Assembly (NCBI GenBank): GCA_003168255.1
Contig: PMSU01000212.1
Coordinates: 1-64,000, forward strand
Length of the DNA: 64,000 nt
DNA from: Actinomycetota bacterium
GTDB taxonomy: Bacteria > Actinomycetota > Actinomycetes > Streptosporangiales > Streptosporangiaceae
Direction: 5' to 3'
Shown: positions 331 through 15,196 of the stretch, one piece after another
Position numbering within the stretch: position 1 is the first letter of the stretch
How the letters are laid out: each line of letters begins with the position of its first letter
The notes under the pieces: model-generated
Databases searched by the model: none
Told to the model about the DNA's origin: nothing
The model's input: the letters and a program-made list of their open reading frames with translations, nothing else
Made by a program: the position numbers and the translations under genes

Positions 331-403
331 GCGCCGCTAGCTCAACTGGCAGAGCAGCGGACTCTTAATCCGCGGGTTCGGGGTTCAAATCCCTGGCGGC
401 GCA
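331..403 (+). tRNA. tRNA-Lys (anticodon CTT)
   Basis: The 73-nt sequence folds as a standard cloverleaf. The acceptor arms GCGCCGC (331-337) and GCGGCGC (396-402) pair perfectly, followed by discriminator A403. The D-arm contains AGCTCAACTGGCAGAGC, the anticodon loop is ACTCTTAAT with CTT, and the T-arm is GGTTCAAATCC-like. The CCA end is not encoded. It is the target of the 14.8-kb island: the part from 351 onward is duplicated at 15139. It remains structurally complete, as expected when an island restores the 3' end of its host tRNA. Confidence 0.95.
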
Positions 404-408
404 CCCGT
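351..408 (+). repeat. Left attachment repeat (within tRNA-Lys)
   Basis: These 58 bases, starting AGAGCAGCGGACTC and ending GGCGCACCCGT, recur without mismatch at 15139-15196. They cover the tRNA from the end of the D-arm to five bases past the discriminator. A weaker match continues for roughly 50 bases through the terminator. Confidence 0.9.
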
Positions 409-411
409 TCT

Positions 412-623: not shown

Positions 624-1889
624 TCACGCCGGGCAGGAAATCAGCTGCGATACACGGGTAGCGACGATGGCTCGTGGCGGTGGGCTGCGTCGCCGGGTGT
701 GGCCGCCGCCGGGTGGGCGTCTGCCATGACGCAAGATCAACCGGGCGGTGGCGGCTGCCACGGCCAGGCCGAGTTCGATGGCGACGCTGAGGTAGGTGTC
801 GGCGGTCAGCACGATGCTGGAGTGACCAAGCTGGTCGGCGATGGCCTTCAAGTCCGCCCCGGCCAGAAGCATCAGCGTGGCAGCTCCGTGGCGCAGGTCA
901 TGCAGCCGCACCGGGGGCAGGCCGGCGTTGGCTGCCAGCGTGTTGAAGGTGCGGGTCAGATGTTCGGGGGACAGTGGCCCGCCGTCGGGTGCGGTGAACA
1001 CGTACCCGCTGAGAATGATGCCGCGGGCACGGGCGTCGTGGTGCTGGGCGCGGCGGTGTTCGCGCAGCGCTGCGATGGTTGTCCGGTCCAGGGCCTCTGC
1101 CCGGCGACTGGCCGGTGTCTTCAATGGGCAGTCGGTGAGTTTCCCGCCGATGTGCTGGATTTGGCGGGTGATGTAGGCCAGCCCGGCGTCCAGGTCCAGG
1201 TCGGCCCAGCGCAGCCCGCAAGCCTCACCACGGCGCAGCCCACGCAGCGCGATCAGCCGGTAGGCGAGGTGCAGCCGGTGCCTGGCAGTGGTTTTCAGGA
1301 ACCGGCGGGTCTGGGAGGTGGTCCAGACCGCGACCGGCGGGCGATCTCCGGTGCGCTGCCAGTCCCGTACCCGGCGGCGGGTCCAGATCACCGCGTGTGG
1401 CCGGTGGCCCGCAGGCACTTGCAGGTACCGGGCGGGGTTGTCGGTGATCAGTTGCTCGCGGACGGCGGCGTTCAGCGCCGACCGCAGCGTGCAGTACACC
1501 CGCCGGACCGTCGCTTCCGTCATCCCCGCCTCCAGCATGCCGGTGAAGACCTGTTGCAGGCGGGCGGCGTCCAGGTCGGCCAGCAGCATGCCACGCAGCC
1601 GCGGGCGCAGGTGGCAGCGCAAGTGTCCTTGGTAGCTGCGGCGGGTGCTGTCGCGCAGCTGAGGCTGGGTGGTAAGCCAGGTATGCAGCCACGCCACCAC
1701 CGTTACCGGCCGCGGGTGGACGCGCGCTCGCTGCCGCCCGGGGGCGCTCGGCGCGCCCGCCGCAGGTGGAGGATCGTGTTGTGGAACCGGCTCGCTGTGT
1801 TCGTGCCGCGGACGCCCCCGGATCTGGCGCTGGGGGAGGCTTAACCCAGGAAACCTGCACCCCAGCGATCTGGCTAGCTTGATTCTCAT
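624..1889 (-). CDS. Tyrosine recombinase (island integrase)
   Basis: The 421-residue protein is a site-specific tyrosine recombinase that would catalyse integration and excision at the tRNA-Lys site. After a poorly conserved N-terminus of about 60 residues, residues 60-155 form the SAM-like core-binding domain and 190-375 the catalytic domain. Visible active-site residues are Arg219 (GLRRGE), His330 and Arg333 (HDLRH), His356 (LGHSS) and Tyr366 (TADTY). Its ATG overlaps the stop of the excisionase gene as ATGA, so the pair is probably translationally coupled. It reads toward the left attachment repeat only about 215 bp away. It is homologous to the second integrase at 2727-4079, with shared blocks such as ALRGLRRGE. 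Confidence 0.92.
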   Translation of the reverse strand: MRIKLARSLGCRFPGLSLPQRQIRGRPRHEHSEPVPQHDPPPAAGAPSAPGRQRARVHPRPVTVVAWLHTWLTTQPQLRDSTRRSYQGHLRCHLRPRLRGMLLADLDAARLQQVFTGMLEAGMTEATVRRVYCTLRSALNAAVREQLITDNPARYLQVPAGHRPHAVIWTRRRVRDWQRTGDRPPVAVWTTSQTRRFLKTTARHRLHLAYRLIALRGLRRGEACGLRWADLDLDAGLAYITRQIQHIGGKLTDCPLKTPASRRAEALDRTTIAALREHRRAQHHDARARGIILSGYVFTAPDGGPLSPEHLTRTFNTLAANAGLPPVRLHDLRHGAATLMLLAGADLKAIADQLGHSSIVLTADTYLSVAIELGLAVAAATARLILRHGRRPPGGGHTRRRSPPPRAIVATRVSQLISCPA

Positions 1890-2203
1890 TTACCGTCCCT
1901 CCTCCCGGCACAGTTCGAGCAGGGCGCGGTTATGCCCAGCACTGCCAGCAGGCTTGCGGTGGGCACCTGATAGATTCTGCCGACCTGCTCCACGCGGCAG
2001 GGGAACGATCCTGCCCGGGCCAGCTCGTAGCTGCGGGTGCGCCCTATCCCGAGGGCCTTCCCGGCACTGACCAGATCCGTGATGGCCGGGAGCGTCATCA
2101 CCTCGGCCAGGGTCATCCCTTTCCTGACCTCGGCCATGGTCATCCCTTTGGGGATGGTGCTGACGGCGGGCCGGCCGGCTCGCTTGCGCAGGGAGATCTT
2201 CAT
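1886..2203 (-). CDS. Excisionase-like helix-turn-helix protein
   Basis: This 105-residue basic protein has a MerR/Xis-type winged-helix segment around residues 44-85 (AGKALGIGRTRSYELARAG, then FPCRVEQVGRIYQVPTASLL), typical of recombination directionality factors encoded beside actinobacterial integrases. It also carries a short internal duplication, MTMAEVRKGMTLAEVM, near residue 21. It overlaps the integrase start by four bases. The expected role is to bind attachment-site arms, favour excision and perhaps regulate the pair. A DNA-binding regulator without excisionase activity is the alternative. Confidence 0.8.
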   Translation of the reverse strand: MKISLRKRAGRPAVSTIPKGMTMAEVRKGMTLAEVMTLPAITDLVSAGKALGIGRTRSYELARAGSFPCRVEQVGRIYQVPTASLLAVLGITAPCSNCAGRRDGK

Positions 2204-2381
2204 GGTTACCTGCCTTCCTGATCAGCGGCTGCCCAGGCCCGCCCGGGAAGCCACCGGCGTCGCCGGCCGGCCCAGGCAGATGTCTTAGCAGTGGTGTTCC
2301 CCGCGCCACCCGTGCAGCCGCGCACAGAGGCCAGTTCCGGCAATGACGGACTTGATCTGTCTGCTGTGTCACGATGAGGTC

Positions 2382-2630
2382 ATGAGTGAGGAGATGCCCT
2401 CGCCGCCGTTCCCCGACCCTGACTCACCGGTGCTCAAGCTGATCGTGACGCGCGCGATCGAGGCCATGCGAACCGGCGAGGCCACCGCTGAGCAGGCCAT
2501 CTTGCACGCCGCCGTGCACGGCTGGTACGAGGGCCACATCCAGGGCGAGGATGCTTGCCCCGGCTGCGACTTCCGCGGCAACCTGCCCAAGCAGACACAG
2601 CGGGGATGGGTGGACCCCAGCAGCAACTGA
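2382..2630 (+). CDS. Small hypothetical protein with CPGC motif
   Basis: The start is the ATG at 2382 (MSEEMPSPPF), preceded by ATGAGGT; an earlier in-frame ATG at 2343 lacks a ribosome-binding site. The product of about 82 residues is acidic and mostly helical at the N-terminus. It ends with GEDACPGCDFRGNL, a CxxC that could be half of a metal site. It lies divergently between the two integrase genes on the island. No family is recognised; small proteins of this kind are common in integrative elements of actinomycetes. Confidence 0.55.
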   Translation: MSEEMPSPPFPDPDSPVLKLIVTRAIEAMRTGEATAEQAILHAAVHGWYEGHIQGEDACPGCDFRGNLPKQTQRGWVDPSSN

Positions 2631-2726
2631 GCACCACCCCTGCGGCCTTGTTCCCGCCGTACACTGCCCTGCCCGCCGGGCACACGGTCAACGGCCGGCG
2701 CCGACGGCCCCCGCGCCCCGTTCTCG

Positions 2727-4079
2727 TCACGCGGCCCGGTCCCTGTCCTGGCCGTGGCGGCGCCGCGCCCAGGCCGGGCCACGGCGGCGGCCTGCGGACA
2801 CCCCGGGGCGCTTCCCGCTCCCCTGCCGCGGGCGGGCAGGAAACAGCAAGGCGGCGGTATTGTCCGCAGCGGCGCGGGCGGTTCGCGGCAGCACGCTGGT
2901 GTAGGTGTCGGCGGTCAGCATGATCGTGGAGTGCCCGAGCTGGTCCTGCACGATCTTCAGATCCGTACCAGCGGCCAGTGCCAGGGTGGCCGCGCCGTGC
3001 CGCAGCCCGTGCAGCGTGACCGGTGGCAGGCCGGATTCGGCGACCAGGCGGCGGAACAGCCGGGTCAGCCGGTCCGGCCCGACCGGCTTGCCCAGTGGCG
3101 TGGTGAACACATACCCGGTCTCGGCCCACCAGGGCCCGGCAGCGGCACGCTCGGCCTGCTGGCGGGCCCGGTGGCCGCGCAGCGCCGCGATCGTGGTCCG
3201 GTCCAGCGCGACCACCCGCCGCCCCGCCTCGCTCTTCGGCGCCCCGGCTACCAGCCGACCGCCGATCTGCTGCAGCTGCCCGCTCACGGTCAGCGTGCCG
3301 GCATCGAGATCCAGATCGGCCCACCGCAGTCCGGCCGCCTCGCCGCGGCGCAGGCCACGCAACGCCACCAGGTGAAACAGGGCATACAGCCGGTGCGTGC
3401 GCACGTGGCTCAGGAATTGCGCCGTCTGCTCCGCCGTCCACACCCCCACCGCCGGCCGCCAGCCCTCCCGCTGCCACAGCTCCACCCTGGCCGACGTCCA
3501 TACCTGCGGCCGCGGCCTCGCGGCGGCGGGCAGCTCTGGCCACCGGCCCGGATTGGTTGGAATCAGGCCCGCGCGGACCGCCGCGTTCAGCGCCGCCCGC
3601 AACGTGGCGTGAATCCGGTGCAGCGTCGCCGCGGTCACCGGCCGGCCCAGCGCCGCATCACCGCGGATGATCGCGGTGAACATCCCCTGCACATCAGCAG
3701 GCGACAGGTCCGCCAGCGGGATCCCGCCCAGATACGGGATGAGGTACCCGCGGACATGCGCAGCGTATCCACGGCTGGTTGAATCCCGCAGCGACACCCT
3801 CGAGGCCAGCCACCGCTCCAGCCACTCCCCCACCCTCAGCCCCTGCACCGGGCCTGGGGCCGCGCCCGTTAGCGCCTCCAGCGCGGCGACCGCTGCCGAT
3901 TTGCTGGCAAACCCGCCCCGGCGAACCCGCCGCCGGTCCCCCGACCGCGACGGCAGTTCCACGCTGAAGTACCAGGTGCCGTGCCGCCGGGAGCTGAGAC
4001 GGGGGCAGCGCACCCCGAGCAGCCTTCCTGTGCCCTGGTCGCGGCAGCCGCAGCGCCGGAACACCGAACCGTGATTCAT
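2727..4079 (-). CDS. Second tyrosine recombinase
   Basis: The start is the ATG at 4079 (MNHGSVFRRCGC), which has GGGGGAGGA just upstream; the frame stays open to 4151 without a better signal. The 450-residue protein has an AP2-like arm-binding N-terminus (about residues 5-65, with CGC near its start), a core-binding domain (80-180) and a catalytic domain with Arg244, His357, Arg360, His383 and Tyr393. All active-site residues are present. No excisionase overlaps it, unlike the first integrase. It may be the remaining recombinase of another element nested in or fused to this island, or an alternative integrase. Its C-terminal tail is Arg/Gly-rich and unstructured. Confidence 0.9.
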   Translation of the reverse strand: MNHGSVFRRCGCRDQGTGRLLGVRCPRLSSRRHGTWYFSVELPSRSGDRRRVRRGGFASKSAAVAALEALTGAAPGPVQGLRVGEWLERWLASRVSLRDSTSRGYAAHVRGYLIPYLGGIPLADLSPADVQGMFTAIIRGDAALGRPVTAATLHRIHATLRAALNAAVRAGLIPTNPGRWPELPAAARPRPQVWTSARVELWQREGWRPAVGVWTAEQTAQFLSHVRTHRLYALFHLVALRGLRRGEAAGLRWADLDLDAGTLTVSGQLQQIGGRLVAGAPKSEAGRRVVALDRTTIAALRGHRARQQAERAAAGPWWAETGYVFTTPLGKPVGPDRLTRLFRRLVAESGLPPVTLHGLRHGAATLALAAGTDLKIVQDQLGHSTIMLTADTYTSVLPRTARAAADNTAALLFPARPRQGSGKRPGVSAGRRRGPAWARRRHGQDRDRAA

Positions 4080-4461
4080 GAATCCTCCCCCAAGGTCCCG
4101 ATCACGTCCCAGGAACCCAAAATGCCTCACATAACACAGGGGCAACTCCACACTCGCTGAGAATCAGCTGAATCGCCCCGCGCGTGCCGCTTATCAGCTT
4201 GATGGGAACGGGGAATTGCCACGCTAAAAGGAACAGCGTCTACCGGGCTGCCTGCGCGCAGTACTGGCGCGACCATCGCAGGCGGCGATGCTGATGATGA
4301 GGTTTGGCTCGCGCGTTGCAGTTGTGGAGGAACCGGAGTCACATCGGCCCGGTTGATGACGTTACCGGCTCATCCCACGGGGCATCACAACCTGTGATAT
4401 CTCGGCGGCAGTTTATGGATACGGGGATGGGGCTGTCTGACCGGATTCCGGGGAGGTGCGC

Positions 4462-5997
4462 ATGCCGAAGATTTCCGCGATCTTGGACTGTTACACGGTG
4501 GAGCCGAGCGGGCTCGGGGTCCCGCCATATTTATCCACCTACGCCCGTGCGGCCTACGGCGCGCTGGTGACGGCGTTCCCCGGTTCGGACATCCGGTACC
4601 TGACGATCGACGACGTGCGGTGGTGCCTGAACGGTGGTCGGCCGCACGTCGCGCTGCCCTTGTCGGATCCGCTGACTTACTCGGCCACAGCCAGCCGCAG
4701 CCAGGCACTGGAGGTTCTCGCGGACGCGGAGATGGTCGTGGTCATCGCGGGTGACGCGGTGCCGTCGGTGCATCTTCAGGCGCAGAACGGGTCGGTGGAG
4801 GAGATCACCCGGGCGCTGGCATGCGTGCGGGGCCGACGTGTGCTGCTGGGCCCGCTGGCCTCTTGGGTGCTGCAAGATCAGGCTTACGCTGGCTTGTTCG
4901 ACGCCGTGCACACGCACACGGTCACCTCCGCTGACCTTGGTGCCGGCAGCCGGGCAGCCGCCCCTTATGAGCGTCTGGCGGGTGACCGGGGCTCGTTCGA
5001 GGGGCTGGTCGGCCAGCTCCGGTGGCGGCCGGTGGCGGAGGTGGAACTGTACCGGGGGTGTACCCGGCGCAGGTTCTGCTCGTTCTGTAACGAGCCAGTA
5101 AAAAGCAGCCGGGTCAGCTTCCGTGACCCCGCAGACGTGCTGGACGAGGTCAGCGCGCTGTATGCGGCCGGGGTGCGCCATCTGCGGCTGGGCCAGCAGA
5201 CCTGCTTCTTTTCCTACCTCAACCGGGACACCGCCGCGATCGAGCGGCTGCTGGCAGGCATCCGCGAGCGCTGCCCCGACTTGGAGGTGCTGCACATCGA
5301 CAACGCCGACCCGCTGGCGGTCGCCTCGCCGGCCGGCGCGACGATCGCGCACCTAGTGGCCCGGTACTGCACCGAGGGCAACTGCGCCCCGCTGGGGATG
5401 GAGAGCTTCGACCCGGCGGTGATCGAAGCCAACACCCTGACCTGCACCCCCCAGGTGCTGATACGCGCCATCGCCAACATCAACCAGGCCGGCGCGCATA
5501 CTGGCCCCGGTGGCCTTCCGGTGCTGCTGCCGGGCCTGAACCTGATTTACGGCCTGCCCGGCGAAACGCACCGAACCCACTATGAGAACCTCGCCGGGCT
5601 GGCGCGGATCCTGAACGAGGGGTATCTGTGCCACCGGATGAACGTGCGCCAGGCCCGCACGTACCATGGCACCCCGCTCGCGGCGATGCACCAGGCACAG
5701 CCGCCACCATCGGCCGAGCATTTCGCCACCTGGAAGGCGGACGTCTCCTACGTGTTCGACCAGCCGATGAAGCAACGGGTCTATCCGGCCGGGCGCACGA
5801 TCACGGGCCTGCACTCGTTCTTTGTCACCAGCAGCGGCACCTGGCACCGGCGGCTCGGCTCCTATCCCATCCAGGTCTTGGAGCGCGGCACCGCCCGCCC
5901 GCTGTTCGAAGACGCCGATCTGACCGTCACCGGCCACCAGCCGCGGTATGTGATCGGGACACGGGATGCCGCCGCAGCCGGCCGCGCCGCTGCCTGA
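4462..5997 (+). CDS. Radical SAM protein of the COG1031 type
   Basis: The ATG at 4462 follows GGGGAGG by five bases. The 511-residue protein has an N-terminal B12-binding-like alpha/beta region (to about residue 190) and a radical SAM barrel. The cluster motif is ELYRGCTRRRFCSFCNEP: Cys200, Cys206 and Cys209, spaced Cx5CxxC rather than the usual Cx3CxxC. The following blocks, HLRLGQQTCFFSY, VLHIDNADP, GMESFDP and LPGLNLIYGLPGET, are those I associate with the archaeal-type COG1031 family. The reaction is unknown; a radical-based modification is expected. It is the first gene of a six-gene overlapping operon, unusual for an actinobacterial mobile island. It lacks the helix-hairpin-helix C-terminus described for archaeal members. 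Confidence 0.8.
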   Translation: MPKISAILDCYTVEPSGLGVPPYLSTYARAAYGALVTAFPGSDIRYLTIDDVRWCLNGGRPHVALPLSDPLTYSATASRSQALEVLADAEMVVVIAGDAVPSVHLQAQNGSVEEITRALACVRGRRVLLGPLASWVLQDQAYAGLFDAVHTHTVTSADLGAGSRAAAPYERLAGDRGSFEGLVGQLRWRPVAEVELYRGCTRRRFCSFCNEPVKSSRVSFRDPADVLDEVSALYAAGVRHLRLGQQTCFFSYLNRDTAAIERLLAGIRERCPDLEVLHIDNADPLAVASPAGATIAHLVARYCTEGNCAPLGMESFDPAVIEANTLTCTPQVLIRAIANINQAGAHTGPGGLPVLLPGLNLIYGLPGETHRTHYENLAGLARILNEGYLCHRMNVRQARTYHGTPLAAMHQAQPPPSAEHFATWKADVSYVFDQPMKQRVYPAGRTITGLHSFFVTSSGTWHRRLGSYPIQVLERGTARPLFEDADLTVTGHQPRYVIGTRDAAAAGRAAA

Positions 5998-6685
5998 CCC
6001 GCGGGGCGGGCACGGGGTCGGCCATGCCGGGGTGCTGGTGCCGTGGGCGAACCTGGTGATGGAAGCGGAGCTGCCCCGGTGGGCGGGCACGTCGGTGGCC
6101 TGGCATTACGCGCGGCTGGTTCCCGCCAGCCGGGGCACGGCATTGGATGAGGAGTTCCTGGGCGGGCTGCTGGCCGCCGTTCCCGCGGCGCTGAGGCAGC
6201 TGGCGGCGCTGCCGCTGCCGCGGGTGTACCTGGGCTGCACCTCGGCCGGGTTCATGCTCCCGGACCAGGTCACGAACGCCACGGCGCGCGCTGAGGTGCC
6301 GGTGGTCACCGCGTTCGATGCCATCCTGGCCGCGCTGCGGCAGCGGCAGGCCACCCGGATTCTCTTGCTGACTCCCTATCCGGAGCAGGTCTGCGACACG
6401 GAGGCCGCCTCGTTCGCTGGTCGTGGCATCGTGGTGACCGGGCGTGCGACGCTGAACCTGCGCGACGGGTACGCCGCCGTCGAACCAGGCCAGATATGCG
6501 AGCTGGCCAGACGAGCAGGCAGGCGGGCAGCCGAGGAGGCGCAGGTGATCGTGTTGTCATGCACCGGATGGCCCACCTTCGGGCTGGACAGGACGCTGGG
6601 GCGACAGCTTGGCCGGGAGGTTGTGTCGTCGAACCGGGCTATCGCCCTGCACGCGCTGCAGGCCTGCGCGGGAGGACGCCGGTGA
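5966..6685 (+). CDS. Asp/Glu racemase superfamily (maleate isomerase / arylmalonate decarboxylase-like)
   Basis: The 239-residue product has the two-cysteine layout of the Asp/Glu racemase superfamily. LGCTSAGF (near residue 91) and VLSCTGWPT (near residue 195) would supply the catalytic cysteines, and LLLTPYPEQV is typical of the maleate cis-trans isomerase/arylmalonate decarboxylase branch. Such enzymes act by 1,1-proton transfer or decarboxylation of small dicarboxylates; the substrate here is not predictable. The gene overlaps the radical SAM gene by 32 bp and the next gene by four (GTGA), so co-translation is likely. A later GTG near 6032 is an alternative start. Confidence 0.72.
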   Translation: MPPQPAAPLPDPRGGHGVGHAGVLVPWANLVMEAELPRWAGTSVAWHYARLVPASRGTALDEEFLGGLLAAVPAALRQLAALPLPRVYLGCTSAGFMLPDQVTNATARAEVPVVTAFDAILAALRQRQATRILLLTPYPEQVCDTEAASFAGRGIVVTGRATLNLRDGYAAVEPGQICELARRAGRRAAEEAQVIVLSCTGWPTFGLDRTLGRQLGREVVSSNRAIALHALQACAGGRR

Positions 6686-7518
6686 GCGGGCACCCAGGCC
6701 TGGCCCTGACCGAAGACTCGCCACAGCTCGCCGAGCGGCTGGGAGATTTTGTCAGCCGTGCCGCGGCGCTGCCGGACGTCCAGGCCGCCGTGGAGGCCAA
6801 TCATGACGACAACCGGTGGTGGCCGGCATATGTGCAGGACTGGCGGGTGCGGATGGCGGTGGCCGGCTGGAGCAGCCGGGTCTCCTATGCGATGGTCGGC
6901 ACGTACGCCAGCGTGGTCGCCGGCGCGGATACCCTCGGCTGGGATCCGCTCACCCGGCTGAACGACGAGTCCCTGGCCCGCCTGGTCCGCCCGATCGGCC
7001 TGCCCGCCGCCCGCATCCGCTACCTGCGGTCACTGGCAAGCTTCATCGACCAGGCTCCGGCATCTACGGTCGGCATCGCCGCGGCGAACCCGGATGACCT
7101 GATCGCCTCGCTGGCCACGGGCGTAGATGGGGCCGGGTTTAACACCGCCCAGTGCGCGGTGCTGTATGCGCGCGGCTACCACTGTGGGATCATCCCGGTG
7201 GACACGGGCATGGTCACCAAGCTCGCCCCCCTGATCGGGATCACGCTGCCCACCGGCGCAGCCGCCTACGAGCACCTGCGGAAGCTGCTGCAGCCTGCCG
7301 TAACCAACCGCGCTGATGACTACCGCGACCTAGCCTCACACCTGGGCTACCGGATCACCATCCCGCCCGATGCGGCCCCGGCCTGGTTCGTGCACCTGGT
7401 CCTCATCTATTTCAAGCGGCTGTACCTCAACCGGCCGCGGCCAGACCTGTGCCCGCGCCGCCCGGCCTGCCCGGTACTGCTGGGATGCGGCTGCTCCCCA
7501 GCCAGGGACACCTGGTGA
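6682..7518 (+). CDS. HhH-GPD superfamily protein (endonuclease III/MutY-like)
   Basis: The start is the GTG at 6682, overlapping the previous stop; longer in-frame starts lie deep inside that gene. The 278-residue protein resembles base-excision glycosylases. A helical segment (45-125) leads to a hairpin-like block around 148-160 (GVDGAGFNTAQC) and IPVDTGMVTKL, where Asp174 matches the catalytic Asp of the VDT motif. The lysine position of bifunctional lyases is not conserved. Cys257, Cys263, Cys269 and Cys271 at the end resemble a degenerate [4Fe-4S] loop. It could remove a modified base from DNA or act on nucleosides as a repurposed fold. The operon context favours nucleobase chemistry. Confidence 0.7.
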   Translation: MSGHPGLALTEDSPQLAERLGDFVSRAAALPDVQAAVEANHDDNRWWPAYVQDWRVRMAVAGWSSRVSYAMVGTYASVVAGADTLGWDPLTRLNDESLARLVRPIGLPAARIRYLRSLASFIDQAPASTVGIAAANPDDLIASLATGVDGAGFNTAQCAVLYARGYHCGIIPVDTGMVTKLAPLIGITLPTGAAAYEHLRKLLQPAVTNRADDYRDLASHLGYRITIPPDAAPAWFVHLVLIYFKRLYLNRPRPDLCPRRPACPVLLGCGCSPARDTW

Positions 7519-8318
7519 GCGTGCTGGCCGTGCTCGGCAACATCTCCCGCGATCAGGCCATCTACCCCGATGGCCGCCGGTTCGACCTGCTGGGCGGTGC
7601 CGCCTTACACGTCGCACGCGCCGCCTGCCGCGCCGGGATGGCGTGTGCGCTGGTGTCGGTGATCGGCGCTGACCTTGACTGGATCCGCGGCGACCCGCGC
7701 CTGGCCGACCTCGACCTGAGCCATGTCGCAACGCGCGAGGAGCCGTCGTGTGCCTTCACCCTCACTTACACCGCCACCGGGACGCTGGCCAGCATCGACT
7801 GCTCGTTCGGCGCCGCTGAATCGCTGACCAGCCACTGCCTCACCGCCATCGGCCACCACGGCCAGTACCACGTCTGCTGCCGGCGCCCCCTGGATGCTGC
7901 CACGGTCCTTGGACGGCTGGCCCGCGACGGGCTGGCCTTCAGTGCCGACTTTCACCTGGCCAGCGCGGGCGAGTTGATCCGGGCCGCCCTGCCGTTCCTG
8001 TCCCTTGCCAGCGCCGTGTTCGTCAACACCGCCGAGTTCGCCACCCTCGCCGCCCTGATTGACCCTGCCCGCCTGGCCGCTGTCGTCGTCTCGGATGGTC
8101 CCCGGGAAGCCAGGCTGATGCGCCACGGCCGCATCACCGCGGCCATCCAGCCACCGGGCGCTCGGGTGGTGGAGGCCACCGGCGCGGGCGACAGTCTCGC
8201 CGGGACTTTCCTGGCTGCCCAGGCCGCCGGGCTCGGCGACCATGCCGCGCTGTGGTCGGCCGTGCTCGCGGCAACCCAGGCCATCCAGGTCCCCGGCCTG
8301 ATCATCAGCAGTCACTGA
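7515..8318 (+). CDS. PfkB/ribokinase family kinase
   Basis: The GTG at 7515 overlaps the stop of the preceding gene (GTGA). The 267-residue protein has the N-terminal GG motif (DLLGGAALHVA, around residue 27) and the C-terminal anion-hole motif ATGAGDSLAG with catalytic-base Asp226. PfkB kinases phosphorylate sugars or nucleosides at a hydroxymethyl or hydroxyl group with ATP. Next to deoxyribosyltransferase-like and dNMP-kinase-like genes, a nucleoside or (deoxy)ribose substrate is the natural guess. At 267 residues it is shorter than typical ribokinases (about 300) and lacks much of the lid region. Confidence 0.82.
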   Translation: MSVLAVLGNISRDQAIYPDGRRFDLLGGAALHVARAACRAGMACALVSVIGADLDWIRGDPRLADLDLSHVATREEPSCAFTLTYTATGTLASIDCSFGAAESLTSHCLTAIGHHGQYHVCCRRPLDAATVLGRLARDGLAFSADFHLASAGELIRAALPFLSLASAVFVNTAEFATLAALIDPARLAAVVVSDGPREARLMRHGRITAAIQPPGARVVEATGAGDSLAGTFLAAQAAGLGDHAALWSAVLAATQAIQVPGLIISSH

Positions 8319-8327
8319 CACGCGGTC

Positions 8328-9284
8328 ATGTCCCTGTACTACGTCGCGCACCGGCTGTTCTCCGCCCACGACCGCGCCCTGGGCGCCTACGCCGCCCACC
8401 GCCTTGCCCAGCGCGTCGGCGCCGACGCGGTGTTCCTGCCGTTCTGCGACACCAGCGAGGACGAGCTGACCGACCCGTGCAAGGGCCGGCGCCTGTTCGA
8501 GCTCGACCGCGAACGGCTGCACGGCATCGACGCCATGCTCGCACTGCTGCACGGCCCCAGCCTGGATGACGGCGTGTGCATGGAGATCGGCTATGCCGCC
8601 GCTCTTGGCGTGCCCGTCGTAGCGCTCACCACCGACTTCCAGACCTATGGCCCCACCAGCAACGGGCCGGCCCGCACCTTTCCCGACCCTCTGCTGGACT
8701 TCCTGCTGGCCGAGGTGATCCGGGCCCCGCACCTCGCCCCGCCGCCAGCGCAGCCAACCGACCGGTTCGCGGCGTTCCTGCACCGCAACCTGCAATCCAT
8801 CGACGAGGCCATCGACCAGGCGATCTCCGCGCTGCTGCGCGCCCAGCCACCAGCTGCTGACAGCCGCGCCGCGCCCGCGGCGGCCGGGCGCTGCGCGTTC
8901 ATCGACCCCTCCCCCTACCTGCCGCGCGACCTATGGGGCGACATCATCCACCTGCTCGAATCCCGCGGCTGGCAGGCCCGCCTCGCCACCCGATTCCGTG
9001 ACTCAGCTGATCCCTGTCATGCGGCCCACGCCGACTGGGCCGCAGCCCGCCGCGCCGACTTGACCCTCATCGACACCCGCGGCCCGGAAACCCCGCCGGG
9101 CGCCGCCATCATCACCGGCGCGTGCGCCGCGACCGGACGCACGGTGCTCGCCGCGGATCCGGGCCGGCAGTGGACGTTCGCCGACGGCCGCGAACCGAAC
9201 TGGCGGAACCTCATGATCCAGTACGCGGTGAGCGGCCGGTTCGCCAGCACCGCAGAACTCGCCGCCCTGATCGAGCTGCCGTGA
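8328..9284 (+). CDS. Nucleoside 2-deoxyribosyltransferase-like protein
   Basis: The 318-residue protein begins SLYYVAHRLFSAHD and carries the family signature around LLHGPSLDDGVCMEIGYAAALG. Glu86 corresponds to the nucleophile that forms the covalent 2-deoxyribosyl intermediate, and GVPVVALTTDF follows as in the family. A second, shorter Rossmann-like segment (about residues 198-318, with a DLTLID/GAAIITGACAATG pattern) looks like a degenerate repeat of the same fold. The expected role is exchange or hydrolysis of the glycosidic bond of a (deoxy)nucleoside or nucleotide. It follows the kinase after nine bases and overlaps the next gene by four. Confidence 0.8.
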   Translation: MSLYYVAHRLFSAHDRALGAYAAHRLAQRVGADAVFLPFCDTSEDELTDPCKGRRLFELDRERLHGIDAMLALLHGPSLDDGVCMEIGYAAALGVPVVALTTDFQTYGPTSNGPARTFPDPLLDFLLAEVIRAPHLAPPPAQPTDRFAAFLHRNLQSIDEAIDQAISALLRAQPPAADSRAAPAAAGRCAFIDPSPYLPRDLWGDIIHLLESRGWQARLATRFRDSADPCHAAHADWAAARRADLTLIDTRGPETPPGAAIITGACAATGRTVLAADPGRQWTFADGREPNWRNLMIQYAVSGRFASTAELAALIELP

Positions 9285-9778
9285 CCGTGCCCGGCCTCAC
9301 CGGCCCGGTGAGCCAGCAGCACCTAGTGGTCATAGACGGCTGCGACGGCGCCGGGAAGTCCACCCTGGCCCAAGCGGTCGCCGCCCGCCACGGGCATGCC
9401 ATCGTGCATGCCACCCTCACCCCCGAGGGGGTAGACCTGTTCGCCAAATACCAGGCGATCCTTGCCCGCCCGGGCCCGCTCGTGCTTGACCGCAGCTTCG
9501 TCAGCGAGCTAGTCCACGGCCCCCTCGATCGCGGCCACTCCCGGCTCACGCTCACCCAGGCCACACAACTAGCCGCGATAGTGGCGCAGCGCGGCGGCAT
9601 CCTGATCCACCTCACCGGCCAGCCGGACCAGATCGCCGCCCGCCTGCTGGCCCGCGACGGCCATACCCCGCCACTGGCACGCGTCAGCGCGTTGATAACC
9701 ACCTACGCCGACACATTCGACAAGCTCGCTGCTTATGCGCCAGTCGTCACCATCGACACGACCACAAGCACGGCGTGA
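9281..9778 (+). CDS. Thymidylate kinase-like P-loop kinase
   Basis: The start is the GTG at 9281, overlapping the previous stop (GTGA). The 165-residue protein has a canonical P-loop GCDGAGKST (residues 20-28), a DRS motif (LVLDRSFVSELVHGP) and a short lid, as in thymidylate kinases and related dNMP kinases. At 165 residues it is smaller than Tmk (about 210), so a phage-like or specialised dNMP kinase is plausible. It is the last gene of the operon and would supply a nucleoside diphosphate after the upstream base-exchange step. This pathway order is inferred. Confidence 0.75.
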   Translation: MTVPGLTGPVSQQHLVVIDGCDGAGKSTLAQAVAARHGHAIVHATLTPEGVDLFAKYQAILARPGPLVLDRSFVSELVHGPLDRGHSRLTLTQATQLAAIVAQRGGILIHLTGQPDQIAARLLARDGHTPPLARVSALITTYADTFDKLAAYAPVVTIDTTTSTA

Positions 9779-9781
9779 CCG

Positions 9782-10114
9782 TCACTGCGGCGTGGACGGC
9801 GGCGGCTGGGTAACGGCTGCATCCTTCACCGGCACCCCGTTGGGCAGCCGCCGGTACACCCGCGCCTCGTTCACCGCCAGCTTGGCCTCCACCGCCTCCT
9901 GCAAGTCGGCACCGGCCATCTCCGCCAAACCCAGCAGGTAGATCGCGACATCCGCCAGTTCCTCCGCGACCTGCGGCCGACCCTTGCGCCAAGCGTCGAA
10001 AGCTTCCGCAACCTCGCCACTAAGTAGGCAAAACTCCAGCGGGATATCAGTGGTGTTGAAGCCTTTCGCCAGCTTGTTCTCCCAGGCAAGCTTTTGCGCC
10101 GACCTGATATCCAC
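9782..10114 (-). CDS. MazG-like nucleotide pyrophosphohydrolase
   Basis: The GTG at 10114 sits four bases after GGGAGGGAG. The 110-residue protein has the all-alpha NTP-PPase pattern: GEVAEAFDAW (ExxE) followed by EELADVAIYLLGL (ExxD), the Mg-binding set of the MazG/iMazG family. Such enzymes hydrolyse (d)NTPs to monophosphates. It is transcribed toward the kinase operon and ends three bases from it, so the two units are convergent. It may clear unwanted dNTPs or support the same nucleotide pathway; house-cleaning is the simpler alternative. Confidence 0.82.
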   Translation of the reverse strand: MDIRSAQKLAWENKLAKGFNTTDIPLEFCLLSGEVAEAFDAWRKGRPQVAEELADVAIYLLGLAEMAGADLQEAVEAKLAVNEARVYRRLPNGVPVKDAAVTQPPPSTPQ

Positions 10115-10129
10115 CGCACTCCCTCCCAC

Positions 10130-10600
10130 CCGTTAGCAGGTCATGTGCTGACTGGGTGGCCAAGCAAAAATGCCACCCATCCCGGCCAGGGACGGTACGT
10201 TACCGGCGCTAGCTTGTGGATCGCTACGTGCACAAACAGCCGTGAGCTGTGGGAAACTACGTCGCCGGAGACGGCCACCTGTGCATGACCGACACTGACT
10301 TCCCAGCCAGGACTACGTACGCTGCCTGTGGAAACGAAAAGCCTCTGTGGACAGCCCGCCTCCGAAACGATTCTGCGCTACCCCGGACCTGGCCACACGA
10401 TCATGTTGGGCACCGCACGAACAGCCTGCCTGCGACACGCCCCGCAGCGACAGTGAGGCCACGACGCCGCTGCCTGACTGGCGGCCCGACTGCTGACCCG
10501 CAGGGCTGTCGGCACATGCGAACGGCATCCCGGCGGACCAGCACTCGGCCCGCAGAGCATTGCGATCGGGGTCGTGCACCGCGATCAGGCTGACCAGATC
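10130..10600. other. Gene-free stretch in the island
   Basis: Short frames here have no family resemblance and contradictory codon use. A minus-strand frame continuing from the integrase-like remnant (RNALRAECWSAG and following) runs through part of it but resembles nothing I know. It is probably decayed DNA between the two cargo blocks. Confidence 0.5.
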
Positions 10601-10603
10601 CGC

Positions 10604-10714
10604 CAGGCTCTTGGCGGTCTGGAAGATCCGCCCGTCCAGAGTCGTGCCGTGCCTCTTGATCTGGGCGCGCAGCAGCGTGACAAGCTCGGGCGGGATCGGG
10701 TGGTCCTCATCTCG
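10604..10714 (-). pseudogene. Remnant of a third tyrosine recombinase
   Basis: About 37 codons read RDEDHPIPPELVTLLRAQI followed by KRHGTTLDGRIFQT, a segment typical of the catalytic-domain N-terminal half of actinobacterial integrases (usually R-x-VPIPPxLVxLLRxHI...DGRLF). No upstream core-binding domain and no downstream HxxR or Tyr motif is found, so only a fragment survives. It lies in the gap between the two cargo operons, consistent with piecewise assembly of the island. Confidence 0.55.
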
Positions 10715-10719
10715 TGGGC

Positions 10720-11050
10720 GCCGCGGTGCTCCACTGGTGGAACTGCGCCAGGGGATGGGCGGACGCTCGTGTTCGGCCCGCTGTGGGCCGACGGTGGATG
10801 CGGGAGGAGGACTCCGCGGGGCTCTGCAGCGGGTGATTGCCCGGCATGAATGGCGCCCGCAGTCCGCAGCAGCTTGGTAATCTCCCCGGCTTCCCGACTG
10901 CCACATTAGTCGCAACTATCACAACGCACTGGGCGGCGACACCATCGATTACAGAAAGTCATTACCTGTCTTTCTTGGCCGCCGAATCTCGCAACGTTAA
11001 GTGGTATACGTAATGGCAACCGAACAGGTACAGAGTGCGAGCGAGGTGCA
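10720..11050. other. Probable promoter region of the nuclease/NTPase operon
   Basis: No supported gene is seen. The last 120 bases are less GC-rich than the surroundings (CGTTAAGTGGTATACGTAAT) and end in GAGCGAGGTGCA before the GTG at 11051, so a promoter probably lies here. I see no clear operator repeat. Confidence 0.4.
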
Positions 11051-12004
11051 GTGGCAGGCCAGCTATCTTCACCGCTTTCGACTGGTGACGCCGGAGGCAT
11101 CTACGAGTACGACGTCGCGACGATCTTGCTAAGCAGGCTCCTGCGGGGAGTCAGTGTCCCGGTCGGTCTTCACGCGCCGGTCGTCCGCGTTGCGTTCCAG
11201 CAGAGCAACGAGGGCTACCCTCTCGATGACGTCGTCGCCTGGGGGCACGCCGACCCGTCTGCTGACGAGCCGCACATTCAGATCCAGGTGAAGCGGAGCG
11301 TCAGGGCAACGGCGAGCGACGCCGAGTTCGTTAAGGTCATGGCACAGGTGGTCACGGCATGCAGCGGGCAGCCGGAGCGGATCTTGGAACGACATTTGCT
11401 CTTCGGCCTGGCGGCGCGCCCCAGCCGAGCGAGCCACCTCGATGAGCTCACCGAGCTGACCGAAATGGCGCGGGCCCATGACAGACATGAGACCTTCGAG
11501 AGCCTGCTCCGCGAGGGGATCACCGGGAAGCCGCTCCGGAACAGGCTCGCGGAAGTCTCGGAGGCTGTCGCGACCGCAGCGGGCGCTACTGATCCCGGTA
11601 CGGTCGGCCCGCTCACTCATCAGATCCTGCGAGCCCTGCACGTGTGGCCGGTCGAGGACGGGCCAGATGGGCGGGACTGGCGGGCTGAACTCGACGGTCT
11701 GGCGGACTTGGCGGCGGAGGCGGGAACAACCTCCACGGGCATCATGGACCGCCTTCGAAGCCTCGCTGAACGCTTCGGGCCACGGTCCGGCAATGTTAAT
11801 GCCGATCACGTGCGTGACCAGCTGGCCCGGTTCCAAATCTACCTGCCCGGCGCGAGCGCCGACATTAGGCCCCCTGCGTCACATGCCACCACCGTCAACG
11901 CGAGTGGGAATAGCACCGTCTTCAACGGCTACTACCAGCAATTCGGCCCAGTCAATATCAACAGCAGGCCAGCCGCACCCGGAGAGGACAACGGAACATC
12001 GTGA
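11051..12004 (+). CDS. PD-(D/E)XK-like nuclease protein, first gene of candidate defence operon
   Basis: The 317-residue protein starts at a GTG and begins with the layout of Cap4/DUF4297-type nuclease domains. GGIYEYDVATILLSRLL is followed by Glu54, the Asp59/Asp60 pair (YPLDDVVAWG) and Gln79-Val-Lys81 (IQIQVKRS), together giving an E...D...QxK active site. The rest (100-260) is helical. The C-terminus, with NASGNSTVFNGYYQQFG, resembles a short beta-rich tag. It overlaps the downstream NTPase gene by four bases. A restriction-like effector cutting DNA on infection is the likely role, inferred from fold motif, gene coupling and island position. Confidence 0.65.
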   Translation: MAGQLSSPLSTGDAGGIYEYDVATILLSRLLRGVSVPVGLHAPVVRVAFQQSNEGYPLDDVVAWGHADPSADEPHIQIQVKRSVRATASDAEFVKVMAQVVTACSGQPERILERHLLFGLAARPSRASHLDELTELTEMARAHDRHETFESLLREGITGKPLRNRLAEVSEAVATAAGATDPGTVGPLTHQILRALHVWPVEDGPDGRDWRAELDGLADLAAEAGTTSTGIMDRLRSLAERFGPRSGNVNADHVRDQLARFQIYLPGASADIRPPASHATTVNASGNSTVFNGYYQQFGPVNINSRPAAPGEDNGTS

Positions 12005-14148
12005 CAGTGCCCGAACTCAGCCAAGCCGTCCACGTGGCGGATCGAGGAACCGCCTTCGTCGCGCACACACAGGTCTTTTACTATGGCGAGGACTTCGTCG
12101 AGGTAAGCGTGGTGCCGGAAGCTGACCTGGCTCCGTGTGCGGAGGAAAGGTTCGTGCCGCCAGGTGGACAGTGGCAGAGCGCCGTCGACAAGCTGCGGCA
12201 CTTTGGCGCGCTCATCATGACAGGCGAGCGCGGCATCGGACGGCGGACTGCGGCGCTGCGCCTGCTGAGCGGGATCAGCGCCAATGGGCGCGTCTACGAG
12301 CTTGTGCCAACGTGGAAGCGGCCAAGCACCAGTATCCTCCCTCCACAGCCTGGAGCCCGGTGCCTTCTTGACATGTCGGAACCCACGGAGAGGCCACCCT
12401 CAGCTGACTTCGGAAAGAAGCTGCTGGACTGGGCTCGAGAGAAGGACCTCGTCCTGGTCGTCATCGCCACGGATGAGACGGGCGCAGACCGATGGGCCGA
12501 CAGCGCGGGGAACGCGGCAATCCGGCTCCGGTCACCGGACGCCCGCAAGCTTGCTGCTCGCGAACTCCGCCTCACTGCGGCAGGGACGACACGAACCGCG
12601 ATCCTGGATGACCCCTCGTTCACCAACATCTGGCTGTCCGCTCCGAAGGCAGCGGATACGCGCCGCCTCGTGAAACTCATCGTCGAAGAACCTTTCCGGA
12701 GCCCGGAGCAGATCACTGACGAGTACCAAGGATGGCGCCAATGGATCGAAGAAACCCTCTCAGAGAAGATGATCGGCCCGCGAACCCTGATGTGGGCGGC
12801 GGCGTTCTGTGACGACGGACAGCGCGCGTCCGTGCTGCGGATGTCGGAAGACCTGCGCCGCAACCTGAAGGAGGACCGCAGCCCTGCCGCTGTCCTGAGC
12901 GATGACCCCGCGTCGCAGCGCCTCGGCGAAGCGGGGATCAAGCCGAACGGCGACAGAGTGCGGTTGGACCCTACCCGCCACGGCATCGCGGAAGCACTCC
13001 GCGTCTACCTCTGGCGCGAATTCGAGGATCCGCCCCTTCGTGGCCTCCTCACGGACTGGCTCGTCTCGCAACTCGGGGAGCTTCCCCCCGACGATGCCCA
13101 GCGCCTCGCGCAGGGCGTTCTCGACATCGTCATCCGCTTCCGCGACGACGACCTGCTGCGCGCCTTGCGCGACAAGCTCACCGGCGACAAGCAACCGATC
13201 GCGGCGCGGTTGCTATCCCGCGCGGCGGTTGATCCACAGTTCGGAGCGCACGTGCGATCCAGCCTCTACAGCTGGGTGAAGGACTCCCGCTCCTGGGCGG
13301 ATCTAGTCGCGGCGGTATGTGGTGGTGAGTTCGGGGAGCAGCAGCCGGAAATGGCCCTGGTGCGGCTCGGCTGGGCTGCGCAAAACGTGGGACCGGGCAG
13401 CCCTGCGCTGGCCAAGGCACTCGCATCGATCGCAACCCGCCAACCGGCGGTCGTTCTCGAGAGCATCGCCAAGTGGCTCGATGACAAGAACCGGCTGACC
13501 GCGGGCATCAACGCGTTCCTCGCACTGGCCTCTATCAGCACCGGTGCTGCCCTGCTCAGCGGACGGGCAGATCCTGCTACCGGCGAAGCTGGCTTCCAGG
13601 ATCGCCTGATTGACTGGTTCCAGCGCTCGACATGCGAGAGCGACACCAGCTACCAGGCCACTATCTCCGTGTTCCAGAACTGGGAGAGGTTTTCCGCTGA
13701 CGGCACGATCGACTCGCGGATCGTGATCCCTGTGCTCGGCAGGAGCATCGAGCCAGCGCTCGGGAAGAACCCGATGCGCCAGCTGCATCCTGGGTTCCCC
13801 GACACGGATAGCTTCTGGAGCCAGGTCTTCACGATCGCCATCAGAGGTGAGGATGCTGTCCAAGAGCCGGAAGTCCCAGTCGCGGCTGATGCCTCCACAG
13901 GGCGGGACCCGCACTGGAACGGACTCGCCTACACCGAACCCAGTACCGGCTCCTCCCCGCGGGTTAGCACGCCGGGCGCCACGGCTCCGACGCCGGAAGC
14001 ACCCACCCGGCCGGACCTGCAAATCTACGCGCCCAGCACCCCTACCCCGGCGCAAGCGATCTCCCAGGATGACATGTATACGGATCCGCCCGTGGTATCC
14101 GGCCTGCAAGCCGACACTGGAACGGACGCGCGTGCCCAGGCTGACTGA
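12001..14148 (+). CDS. Large P-loop NTPase-like protein of the candidate defence operon
   Basis: The 715-residue protein starts at a GTG overlapping the preceding stop. Near its N-terminus LIMTGERGIGRRTAALRLL (about 71-89) is a Walker A with Arg in place of the usual Lys, and CLLDMSEP (about 121-128) fits a Walker B. Beyond about residue 230 it is helical, without clear repeat units I can name. Its last 100 residues are Pro/Thr-rich and probably disordered. A STAND-like sensor or scaffold partner of the nuclease is plausible. The Arg substitution raises the possibility of weak or no ATP hydrolysis. No exact family is recognised. Confidence 0.6.
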   Translation: MTVPELSQAVHVADRGTAFVAHTQVFYYGEDFVEVSVVPEADLAPCAEERFVPPGGQWQSAVDKLRHFGALIMTGERGIGRRTAALRLLSGISANGRVYELVPTWKRPSTSILPPQPGARCLLDMSEPTERPPSADFGKKLLDWAREKDLVLVVIATDETGADRWADSAGNAAIRLRSPDARKLAARELRLTAAGTTRTAILDDPSFTNIWLSAPKAADTRRLVKLIVEEPFRSPEQITDEYQGWRQWIEETLSEKMIGPRTLMWAAAFCDDGQRASVLRMSEDLRRNLKEDRSPAAVLSDDPASQRLGEAGIKPNGDRVRLDPTRHGIAEALRVYLWREFEDPPLRGLLTDWLVSQLGELPPDDAQRLAQGVLDIVIRFRDDDLLRALRDKLTGDKQPIAARLLSRAAVDPQFGAHVRSSLYSWVKDSRSWADLVAAVCGGEFGEQQPEMALVRLGWAAQNVGPGSPALAKALASIATRQPAVVLESIAKWLDDKNRLTAGINAFLALASISTGAALLSGRADPATGEAGFQDRLIDWFQRSTCESDTSYQATISVFQNWERFSADGTIDSRIVIPVLGRSIEPALGKNPMRQLHPGFPDTDSFWSQVFTIAIRGEDAVQEPEVPVAADASTGRDPHWNGLAYTEPSTGSSPRVSTPGATAPTPEAPTRPDLQIYAPSTPTPAQAISQDDMYTDPPVVSGLQADTGTDARAQAD

Positions 14149-15138: not shown

Positions 15139-15196
15139 AGAGCAGCGGACTCTTAATCCGCGGGTTCGGGGTTCAAATCCCTGGCGGCGCACCCGT
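15139..15196 (+). repeat. Right attachment repeat (truncated tRNA-Lys 3' part)
   Basis: This is a perfect copy of 351-408. The bases before it (GTCGAATATT) do not match the tRNA 5' half, so it cannot encode a functional tRNA. It marks the distal end of the island; the chromosome resumes after it. Confidence 0.9.

What the first reader, a model, noticed from the sequence alone, without database searches (positions are those of the whole stretch)
4462..10114. Candidate undescribed nucleobase/nucleotide pathway carried by the island
Five of the six plus-strand genes are joined by stop-start or longer overlaps and the sixth starts after nine bases. They encode a COG1031-type radical SAM protein, an Asp/Glu-racemase-like enzyme, an HhH-GPD glycosylase-like protein, a PfkB kinase, a nucleoside deoxyribosyltransferase-like protein with its nucleophile Glu, and a small dNMP kinase. 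A MazG-like gene follows convergently. I know no described system with this composition. A coherent reading is release of a base, radical modification, re-attachment to a (deoxy)ribose and phosphorylation, giving a modified nucleotide for DNA protection, defence or a nucleoside product. Gene order and families are seen; the pathway is inference.
Basis: partly seen in the sequence, partly recalled or inferred. Interest (0 to 1): 0.9.

Follow-up and report, generated by a model that had tools for sequence, protein, structure and literature searches.

The report
Mobile seven-gene deoxynucleotide-modifying cassette
A compact set of seven enzyme genes that travels as one unit between soil actinobacteria probably builds an unknown modified DNA building block and cleans it up, and we found no described system with this make-up.

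Summary
All seven lie together in the same order in 29 of 29 non-redundant complete loci. These come from 39 bacterial places found; the other 10 are one near-duplicate, two contig-end truncations and seven decayed or fragmentary copies. In one pair of different genera the homologous stretch is just the cassette (5.9 kb, 94% identical) with unrelated flanks, so it can move as one unit. Here it sits in a 14.8-kb integrative element in tRNA-Lys; elsewhere on linear Streptomyces plasmids or beside integrases. All seven genes are under purifying selection in 12 tested pairs, evolve in step and keep catalytic residues. At the thresholds used, the HhH-like and two-domain deoxyribosyltransferase-like families were seen only in this cassette or its remnants. 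The radical SAM protein resembles an archaeal protein but has CX5CX2C and six further invariant cysteines. Deoxyribosyltransferase, (d)NMP kinase, dNTP pyrophosphatase and DNA-glycosylase folds point to deoxynucleotides. Best reading: a pathway making and activating a modified deoxynucleoside, with its own sanitising enzymes. Substrate, product and purpose are inferred.

The parts
351..408 (+). left attachment site: 3' part of tRNA-Lys (331-405) plus 3 bases
   Evidence: 58-bp exact direct repeat with 15139-15196; a 37-base core occurs twice in the held genome, up to 2 mismatches allowed
624..1889 (-). tyrosine integrase next to the attachment site
   Evidence: Pfam Phage_integrase 3.8e-22
2727..4151 (-). 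second tyrosine integrase
   Evidence: Pfam 1.6e-19, PHROG_1 9.3e-69
4462..5997 (+). radical SAM protein, CX5CX2C cluster motif plus six further invariant Cys (10, 248, 303, 308, 328, 390)
   Evidence: Pfam; alignment A1 of 16; 29/29 for each Cys; 35% identical to a haloarchaeal relative in the alignment
5966..6685 (+). Asp/Glu racemase superfamily, maleate isomerase / arylmalonate decarboxylase / EutA branch, two invariant Cys (C91, C199); start codon uncertain
6682..7518 (+). HhH-GPD-fold protein, catalytic-type Asp (D176 in the numbering of 6676-7518), C-terminal C-x5-C-x5-C-x-[C/H]
   Evidence: Pfam 0.004, below cut-off, AlphaFold model and Foldseek, alignment A2
7515..8318 (+). PfkB-family kinase (sugar or nucleoside), GAGD motif kept
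8328..9284 (+). two-domain nucleoside 2-deoxyribosyltransferase-like protein; N-domain nucleophile E86, C-domain possibly a degenerate copy
9281..9778 (+). small thymidylate-kinase-like (d)NMP kinase
   Evidence: PHROG_761 1.7e-16, PDB yorR 1.9e-14, actinophage thymidylate kinases about 30% identical
9782..10129 (-). MazG-like dNTP pyrophosphatase, seventh member of the cassette
   Evidence: DCTPP1 1.8e-08, MazZ 1.3e-07; last gene in 29/29 loci
15139..15196 (+). right attachment site
   Evidence: 58-bp exact repeat

Best explanation
A self-contained mobile pathway for a modified 2'-deoxynucleoside or nucleotide. The radical SAM protein, with the racemase-like enzyme, modifies a nucleobase-like ring or its precursor (inferred). 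The deoxyribosyltransferase-like enzyme attaches the base to deoxyribose, the PfkB kinase makes the monophosphate and the thymidylate-kinase-like enzyme the diphosphate (families shown, substrates inferred). The MazG-like pyrophosphatase and the HhH-GPD glycosylase-like protein act as the sanitising side: MazG takes the finished or a competing dNTP back to dNMP, and the glycosylase removes the odd base from the carrier's own DNA. The product would thus be an antimetabolite against phages or competitors, with built-in self-protection. Shown: the seven genes, their linkage, movement as one unit, selection on each, and retained catalytic residues. Inferred: substrates, product and purpose.
For: Seven-gene cassette complete and in order in 29 of 29 complete non-redundant loci. 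A 5.9-kb unit shared by two genera with unrelated flanks. dN/dS 0.06-0.47 for every gene in each of 12 pairs. Pairwise distances of all 21 gene pairs correlate at r 0.81-0.96, against at most 0.36 in 500 permutations each. Four families point at deoxynucleotides: deoxyribosyltransferase; kinase whose phage relatives (57 records) are annotated thymidylate kinases in the 12 rows listed, with MazG or dUTPase named beside it in 6 of those 12 and in both records opened; MazG closest in the PDB to DCTPP1 and MazZ; DNA-glycosylase fold. The transferase-type DDGxxxE stretch is kept (its meaning recalled). Parallels: in human cells DCTPP1 takes 5-aza-dCTP back to the monophosphate, and SMUG1 acts on hmdU in DNA (PMC11183266, passages read); DNA glycosylases as self-resistance genes inside Streptomyces clusters are established for other folds (PMC9040887, abstract read).
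Against: No exporter or regulator was found as part of the conserved unit (an incomplete gene picker: it recovered the racemase gene in only 7 and PfkB in only 10 of 18 sources, so a shared neighbour could be missed). No substrate is known for any of the seven. The HhH hairpin lacks the usual LPGVG, so DNA binding is unproven; the lysine at the lyase position is Asn in 2 of 29, the window being one; profile comparison with E. coli Nth failed. In the decitabine paper DCTPP1 promotes rather than prevents toxicity (its loss gives resistance), so a MazG gene need not be protective. PADLOC has no confident model for any cassette protein: only the P-loop kinase scores, at best 1.8e-05.
Confidence: 0.42

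Rival explanations
1. DNA-base replacement or marking: the modified dNTP is meant to enter DNA, MazG depletes the canonical competitor dNTP (as MazZ does in Z-DNA phages, recalled), and the glycosylase edits wrong positions or attacks unmodified foreign DNA.
For: dNMP kinase + MazG + dedicated glycosylase-fold protein; relatives of the kinase in phage dNTP-metabolism loci and of MazG in 9 phage records.
Against: No polymerase or nucleotide synthase of the known replacement systems in the unit; rSAM not found in 50,697 phage records, and no confirmed relative in viral contigs for rSAM, HhH and deoxyribosyltransferase queries.
Confidence: 0.18
2. Sanitation and repair only: the cassette removes a particular damaged base or deoxynucleotide (for example a hydantoin-type lesion), with glycosylase, MazG and glycosidase clearing it and the radical SAM and racemase-like enzymes breaking it down or reversing it.
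For: MazG + deoxyribosyltransferase-superfamily + DNA glycosylase fold resembles human DCTPP1/DNPH1/SMUG1 (grouping recalled); a 36%-identical racemase sits beside hydantoinase genes.
Against: Two kinases of the salvage direction and a transferase-type rather than hydrolase-type motif; patchy, mobile distribution is odd for general repair.
Confidence: 0.15
3. The product is not a nucleotide: the pathway makes another small molecule (cofactor or signal) and the nucleotide-enzyme folds have been recruited for other substrates.
For: PfkB, Asp/Glu-racemase and radical SAM families are promiscuous (recalled); the HhH protein has an atypical hairpin and a rearranged metal-type site.
Against: Four independent families with deoxynucleotide or DNA ancestry; all keep family-type catalytic residues.
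Confidence: 0.15

Closest known systems
Archaeal radical SAM protein with C-terminal helix-hairpin-helix (COG1031 type, label recalled), Natronorubrum bangense WP_006067939
   Same: Homology over nearly the whole length, 30% (tblastn) to 35% (alignment) identity, shared GVPPY and LHxDN motifs
   Different: Archaeal protein has CX3CX2C, ends in an HhH-like stretch, lacks the six extra Cys and is beside a TRAM-domain gene, not the cassette; only one archaeal sequence was compared
Nucleoside 2-deoxyribosyltransferases (PDB 7m5h, 7o62, 1s2d)
   Same: Fold of the N-terminal domain, nucleophile Glu, DDGxxxE stretch (the single top Foldseek hit is an unrelated resistance protein at TM 0.24)
   Different: Two domains in one chain; second domain possibly a degenerate copy without Glu; the full-length form was seen only in the cassette in the samples searched
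HhH-GPD DNA glycosylases (endonuclease III, NTHL1, OGG)
   Same: Predicted fold and position of the catalytic Asp
   Different: No significant profile match to E. coli Nth; TM-scores only 0.44/0.51 for the top hit; hairpin not LPGVG; C-x5-C-x5-C-x-[C/H] instead of the C-x6-C-x2-C-x5-C of endonuclease III (recalled); a conserved N-terminal EANHDxNxWWP block
Phage thymidine hypermodification operons (HMUDK / alpha-glutamyl-putrescinyl thymine pyrophosphorylase)
   Same: Combination of HhH-type helical proteins and small kinases with base modification (recalled)
   Different: Only weak fold hits to those proteins (E 0.31 and 4.8); other genes differ
Glycosylase self-resistance in Streptomyces clusters (AlkZ/HedH4, YtkR2)
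   Same: DNA glycosylase encoded with a biosynthetic pathway as self-protection (PMC9040887 abstract; PMC8626424 start of abstract in the listing)
   Different: Those belong to HTH_42 and AlkD-related families, not HhH-GPD

Membership tests
HhH-GPD DNA glycosylase superfamily | HhH-GPD fold | tested here: met
   AlphaFold pLDDT 81; 3 hits with E<=0.001, all Deinococcus endonuclease III, and 50 of 50 hits shown (of 228 with E<=10) are glycosylases of this fold; TM-scores modest (top 0.44/0.51)
HhH-GPD DNA glycosylase superfamily | Sequence profile above curated cut-off | tested here: not met
   17.9 bits against 26.2; hhalign with Nth not significant
HhH-GPD DNA glycosylase superfamily | Catalytic Asp | tested here: met
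   D176 in 29/29, just before the helix that follows the hairpin in the model; equivalence to the enzymes' Asp is by motif and position, not by solved structure
HhH-GPD DNA glycosylase superfamily | Glycosylase activity on DNA | not testable with these tools
   needs assay
Nucleoside 2-deoxyribosyltransferase family (PF05014) | Profile match and nucleophile Glu | tested here: met
   63.8 bits against 28.8; E86 29/29
Nucleoside 2-deoxyribosyltransferase family (PF05014) | Transfer between bases rather than hydrolysis | not testable with these tools
   DDGxxxE motif suggests it (motif meaning recalled)
Radical SAM superfamily | CX3CX2C motif and Radical_SAM profile | tested here: inconclusive
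   profile met (35.4 against 29.5 bits); motif is CX5CX2C in the 16 of A1, and the three Cys are 29/29
Phage DNA hypermodification systems | hydroxymethylpyrimidine synthase, HMUDK or pyrophosphorylase genes with phage replication genes | tested here: not met
   none among the seven genes; no phage or viral hit for rSAM
Known anti-phage defence systems (PADLOC-DB 2.0.0) | match of core proteins to a system model | tested here: not met
   among the seven cassette proteins only the P-loop kinase scores, weakly, best 1.8e-05
Nucleoside antibiotic biosynthetic clusters | nucleoside product and export or resistance genes | tested here: inconclusive
   no conserved exporter seen (incomplete gene picker); product unknown

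The most novel reading that the evidence does not exclude
An undescribed mobile seven-gene system that makes a modified 2'-deoxynucleotide by radical chemistry with a CX5CX2C enzyme probably carrying an extra iron-sulphur site, uses it as a DNA-directed chemical weapon or DNA mark, and carries its own HhH-GPD glycosylase and dNTP pyrophosphatase as safety catches.
Probability: 0.4. Interest if true: 0.92.

Novelty: categorically new. Interest (0 to 1): 0.82.

Why it matters
The cassette is a clean seven-gene unit. At least one of its genes was found in about 4% of sampled Streptomycetaceae (15 of 394) and own-family genomes (13 of 341; 11 of 302; remnants included), while a sample across the phylum gave only the own genome (1 of 396). 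Two of its protein families were seen only in it or its remnants. If it makes a modified deoxynucleotide, it offers a new nucleobase chemistry, a radical SAM enzyme with an unusual cluster motif, and a direct test of whether bacteria arm DNA precursors and protect themselves with a matching glycosylase. It is small enough to express whole and assay in one experiment.

Tried and rejected
Phage hypermodification operon: rejected as a family, because only weak fold hits appear and no phage or viral homologue of the rSAM was found.

Known defence system: PADLOC gave no confident match to a cassette protein. Flanks of 15 loci (130 of 158 predicted flank proteins given) hold some defence-type genes: in the 25 families shown of 114, JetA-like in 2 proteins, MADS-type in 2-3, kinase-type (PD-T4-6) in 2. 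Of 10 flank proteins scanned singly, 3 matched: a type IIG restriction-methyltransferase in L029 (3.2e-67), a MADS/kinase-type protein in L022 and a mad3-like one in L024. No partner is shared widely, and no random-region control was run, so a defence role is neither shown nor excluded.

A conserved eighth gene: all-against-all comparison of predicted neighbours in 18 sources found no further family in more than 4 of them. The gene picker was incomplete (racemase recovered in 7, PfkB in 10 of the 18), and the 13 loci fetched later (3 plasmids, 10 Streptomycetaceae) were not in it; close Streptomycetaceae pairs share 8.7-12 kb, more than the cassette.

Profile detection of the HhH protein against E. 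coli Nth failed, so the fold claim rests on the predicted structure.

Variant cassettes: the Natronorubrum record has a radical SAM relative but no HhH match anywhere on that plasmid (a search without a positive control). NBC_00829, which looked like a variant, is a remnant with a cut PfkB gene.

A shared operator: no inverted repeat with arms of 7 or more common to the upstream regions of the 29 loci.

Paper searches (10 calls): six returned no paper; the other four aimed at parallels or broad terms (116: 1 paper, 117: 14, 118: 3, 119: 1,346 of which 10 listed). None listed describes this composition by title or abstract start. The library lacks most subscription journals.
Full report
WHAT IS THERE. 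The window holds six overlapping or near-touching plus-strand genes at 4462-9778 and a convergent MazG-like gene at 9782-10129. Junctions are -32, -4, -4, +9 and -4 bases; three are GTGA stop-start overlaps, at 6682, 7515 and 9281. One search prints -118 for racemase/HhH in the window because its script chose an earlier in-frame start; the GTGA start matches the -4 seen in most relatives. Family assignments are (Pfam; NCBIfam; PHROGs). The radical SAM, racemase-like, PfkB and deoxyribosyltransferase genes pass Pfam's cut-offs. HhH-GPD, MazG and the kinase do not and needed further evidence. NCBIfam passes none of the proteins given over its cut-off, so none has an assigned exact function.

SETTING. 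A 58-bp exact direct repeat of the tRNA-Lys 3' part lies at 351-408 and 15139-15196. A 37-base core, up to 2 mismatches allowed, occurs only at these two places in the held 7.15-Mb genome (93% complete, 214 contigs). Two tyrosine integrases lie at 624-1889 and 2727-4151. The cassette is therefore very probably cargo of a 14.8-kb integrative element.

SURVEY. HhH queries hit 5 of 100 relatives and 13 of 341 family members, and 11 loci in the species genome collection. The radical SAM query hit 1 of 396 genomes drawn across the phylum (the own genome only), 15 of 394 genomes in the family of G023, which I take to be Streptomycetaceae because three of its hits have the contig lengths of Kitasatospora and Actinacidiphila records, and 11 of 302 in the own family. 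The deoxyribosyltransferase query hit 11 of 338 in the own family. All 11 of those are among the 13 HhH-positive genomes. Of the 11 radical SAM-positive genomes, 10 are among them too; the other, G598, holds a 99-residue fragment. The three samples differ slightly, so absences between them are not all informative. Among plasmids the radical SAM query hit 7 of 72,556 records: 4 linear Streptomyces plasmids with the full set (two of them near-identical), 1 archaeal relative and 2 fragments. The HhH query hit the same 4 plasmids and nothing else; the deoxyribosyltransferase query hit those 4 and the NBC_00829 remnant, and one Enterococcus phage over a third of its length. No rSAM match was found in 50,697 phage records, and no confirmed relative of HhH, rSAM or deoxyribosyltransferase in viral contigs.

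COUNTING THE LOCI. Merging duplicates gives 39 distinct bacterial places: 30 complete cassettes (29 after removing a near-identical plasmid), 2 cut by contig ends (L032, L033) and 7 decayed or fragmentary (L034, L077, L078, NBC_00829, NBC_01724, NBC_01450, G598). This merge was done by hand, using equal contig lengths. In the 29, all seven genes are found by tblastn in the same order; being complete was the condition for entering the 29, so the decayed 7 are the honest complement. Caveats: the PfkB match in L020 lacks its N-terminal part (165 aa), and ORF ends in L021, L026, L073 and L076 look irregular, which may be sequencing error, an assembly gap, start choice or decay. MazG is on the cassette strand in 23 and opposite in 6.

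IT MOVES AS ONE UNIT. Mangrovihabitans endophyticus (L024) and Paractinoplanes lichenicola (L025) share one 5,932-bp stretch at 94.3% identity. It runs from about 180 bases before the radical SAM gene to about 85 bases after MazG, and the flanks are unrelated apart from one 72-base match. The other five pairs compared share longer stretches (8.7-12 kb), so the tight boundary is shown by one pair only. With the window's second integrase as query, an integrase-like match was seen in L021, L025, L030 and in L065, L067, L072 (short), L073-L077, and in no other of the loci given to those two calls. No neighbouring family other than the seven recurs in more than 4 of the 18 sources compared, with an incomplete gene picker.

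SELECTION AND CO-EVOLUTION. In 12 pairs every gene has dN/dS between 0.06 and 0.47. Distance matrices of the seven proteins correlate at 0.81-0.96 in all 21 comparisons, against a maximum of 0.36 in 500 permutations each. This shows joint inheritance, not joint function by itself. Mean identity over the 29 loci is 72% for the radical SAM protein and 51-61% for the others.

THE PROTEINS. Radical SAM: C200-x5-C206-x2-C209, plus C10, C248, C303, C308, C328 and C390, each 29 of 29. The archaeal relative has CX3CX2C, none of those six at the aligned positions, and a C-terminal HhH-like stretch. A further cluster is inference. Racemase-like: C91 and C199, 29 of 29; nearest PDB entries are maleate isomerase (3.5e-19) and arylmalonate decarboxylase (8.1e-17). 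A 36% relative on a plasmid lies beside hydantoinase genes. HhH: predicted structure pLDDT 81.4, pTM 0.79; Foldseek top hits endonuclease III (1.8e-04, TM 0.44/0.51), then NTHL1, OGG and MagIII. D176 is 29 of 29; the lysine position is K in 27 and N in 2, the window being one of the two (numbered 36 higher there). The C-terminal motif is C-x5-C-x5-C-x-[C/H] in the 16 of A2; over the 29 the three Cys are kept in 28, 29 and 28. In 120 relatives its profile hits only the 5 cassette carriers at E<=0.01, although the own genome has five other PF00730 matches. Deoxyribosyltransferase-like: E86 29 of 29; PDB 7m5h 4.3e-11 and 7o62 4.9e-07; model pLDDT 79.9, whose very first Foldseek hit is an unrelated protein (TM 0.24) followed by deoxyribosyltransferases mixed with other unrelated hits. 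Its two halves align only weakly (hhalign E 0.006, probability 6%, against E 0.09-0.53 for four unrelated controls), suggestive of an internal copy that lost the Glu. Kinase: nearest solved structure is yorR of the SPBc2 prophage (1.9e-14); 57 Microbacterium phage records match at about 30%, named thymidylate kinase in the 12 rows listed, with MazG or dUTPase beside it in 6 of the 12 and in both records opened. MazG: DCTPP1 1.8e-08 and MazZ 1.3e-07.

HOW IT MOST LIKELY WORKS. Shown: the gene set, linkage, mobility, selection and catalytic residues. Inferred: a base-like compound is made or altered by the radical SAM and racemase-like enzymes, attached to deoxyribose, and phosphorylated twice. 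MazG and the glycosylase-like protein keep it out of the carrier's own DNA. Human enzymes give a working parallel: DCTPP1 acts on 5-aza-dCTP and SMUG1 on hmdU in DNA (PMC11183266, passages; the role of DNPH1 is recalled, the passages only give its reference). In that paper loss of DCTPP1 gives resistance, so the parallel does not prove protection. Self-resistance glycosylases of other folds are a second parallel (PMC9040887, abstract; PMC8934636, start of abstract in the listing). The purpose (phage defence, competition or DNA marking) is open.

NOVELTY. Ten paper searches listed no paper describing this composition, six of them with no hit at all. One paper on conflict systems was checked by passages on five terms and holds no match (PMC7159879). 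For the seven proteins, PADLOC, PHROGs, NCBIfam and Pfam returned only general or unnamed family models. I call it categorically new by composition; if the product proves to be an exported nucleoside antibiotic, it would become a new member of a known kind.

Noticed in passing
window 11051-14148: Two overlapping genes in the same element: a 317-aa protein of unknown family and a 715-aa protein with a P-loop-like GERGIGRRTA stretch; no Pfam match at 0.01 or confident PADLOC match. Could be a conflict-system pair carried with the cassette.
   Followed up: partly
window 351-15196: The element has two different tyrosine integrases (624-1889 and 2727-4151), perhaps one element inserted in another.
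   Followed up: partly
L018:13793-13866: A tRNA-Lys(ctt) gene lies about 300 bases beyond the cassette in a second relative, the same tRNA type as in the window; L030 (tRNA-Leu) and L076 (tRNA-Thr) have tRNA genes within about 1-4 kb of the cassette.
   Followed up: no
upstream of rSAM in L020, L023, L040, L065-L067, L070, L072-L076: By eye, a shared run of CAACC repeats some 100-150 bases before the start that looks like a regulator site; not seen in the window.
   Followed up: no
L024 and L025, about 100 bases before rSAM: Perfect inverted repeat GAGTCAT-6-ATGACTC inside the shared 5.9-kb unit.
   Followed up: partly
L044 (Streptomyces sp. NBC_00829 plasmid), L034, L077, L078: Remnants of the cassette: first three genes missing and PfkB cut, with a transposase gene nearby (L044); pieces of racemase and HhH (L034); radical SAM in pieces (L077, L078).
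   Followed up: partly
L026: The window's closest complete relative (82% rSAM identity) comes from a genome labelled Solirubrobacterales MAG, possibly a binning error or a distant transfer.
   Followed up: no
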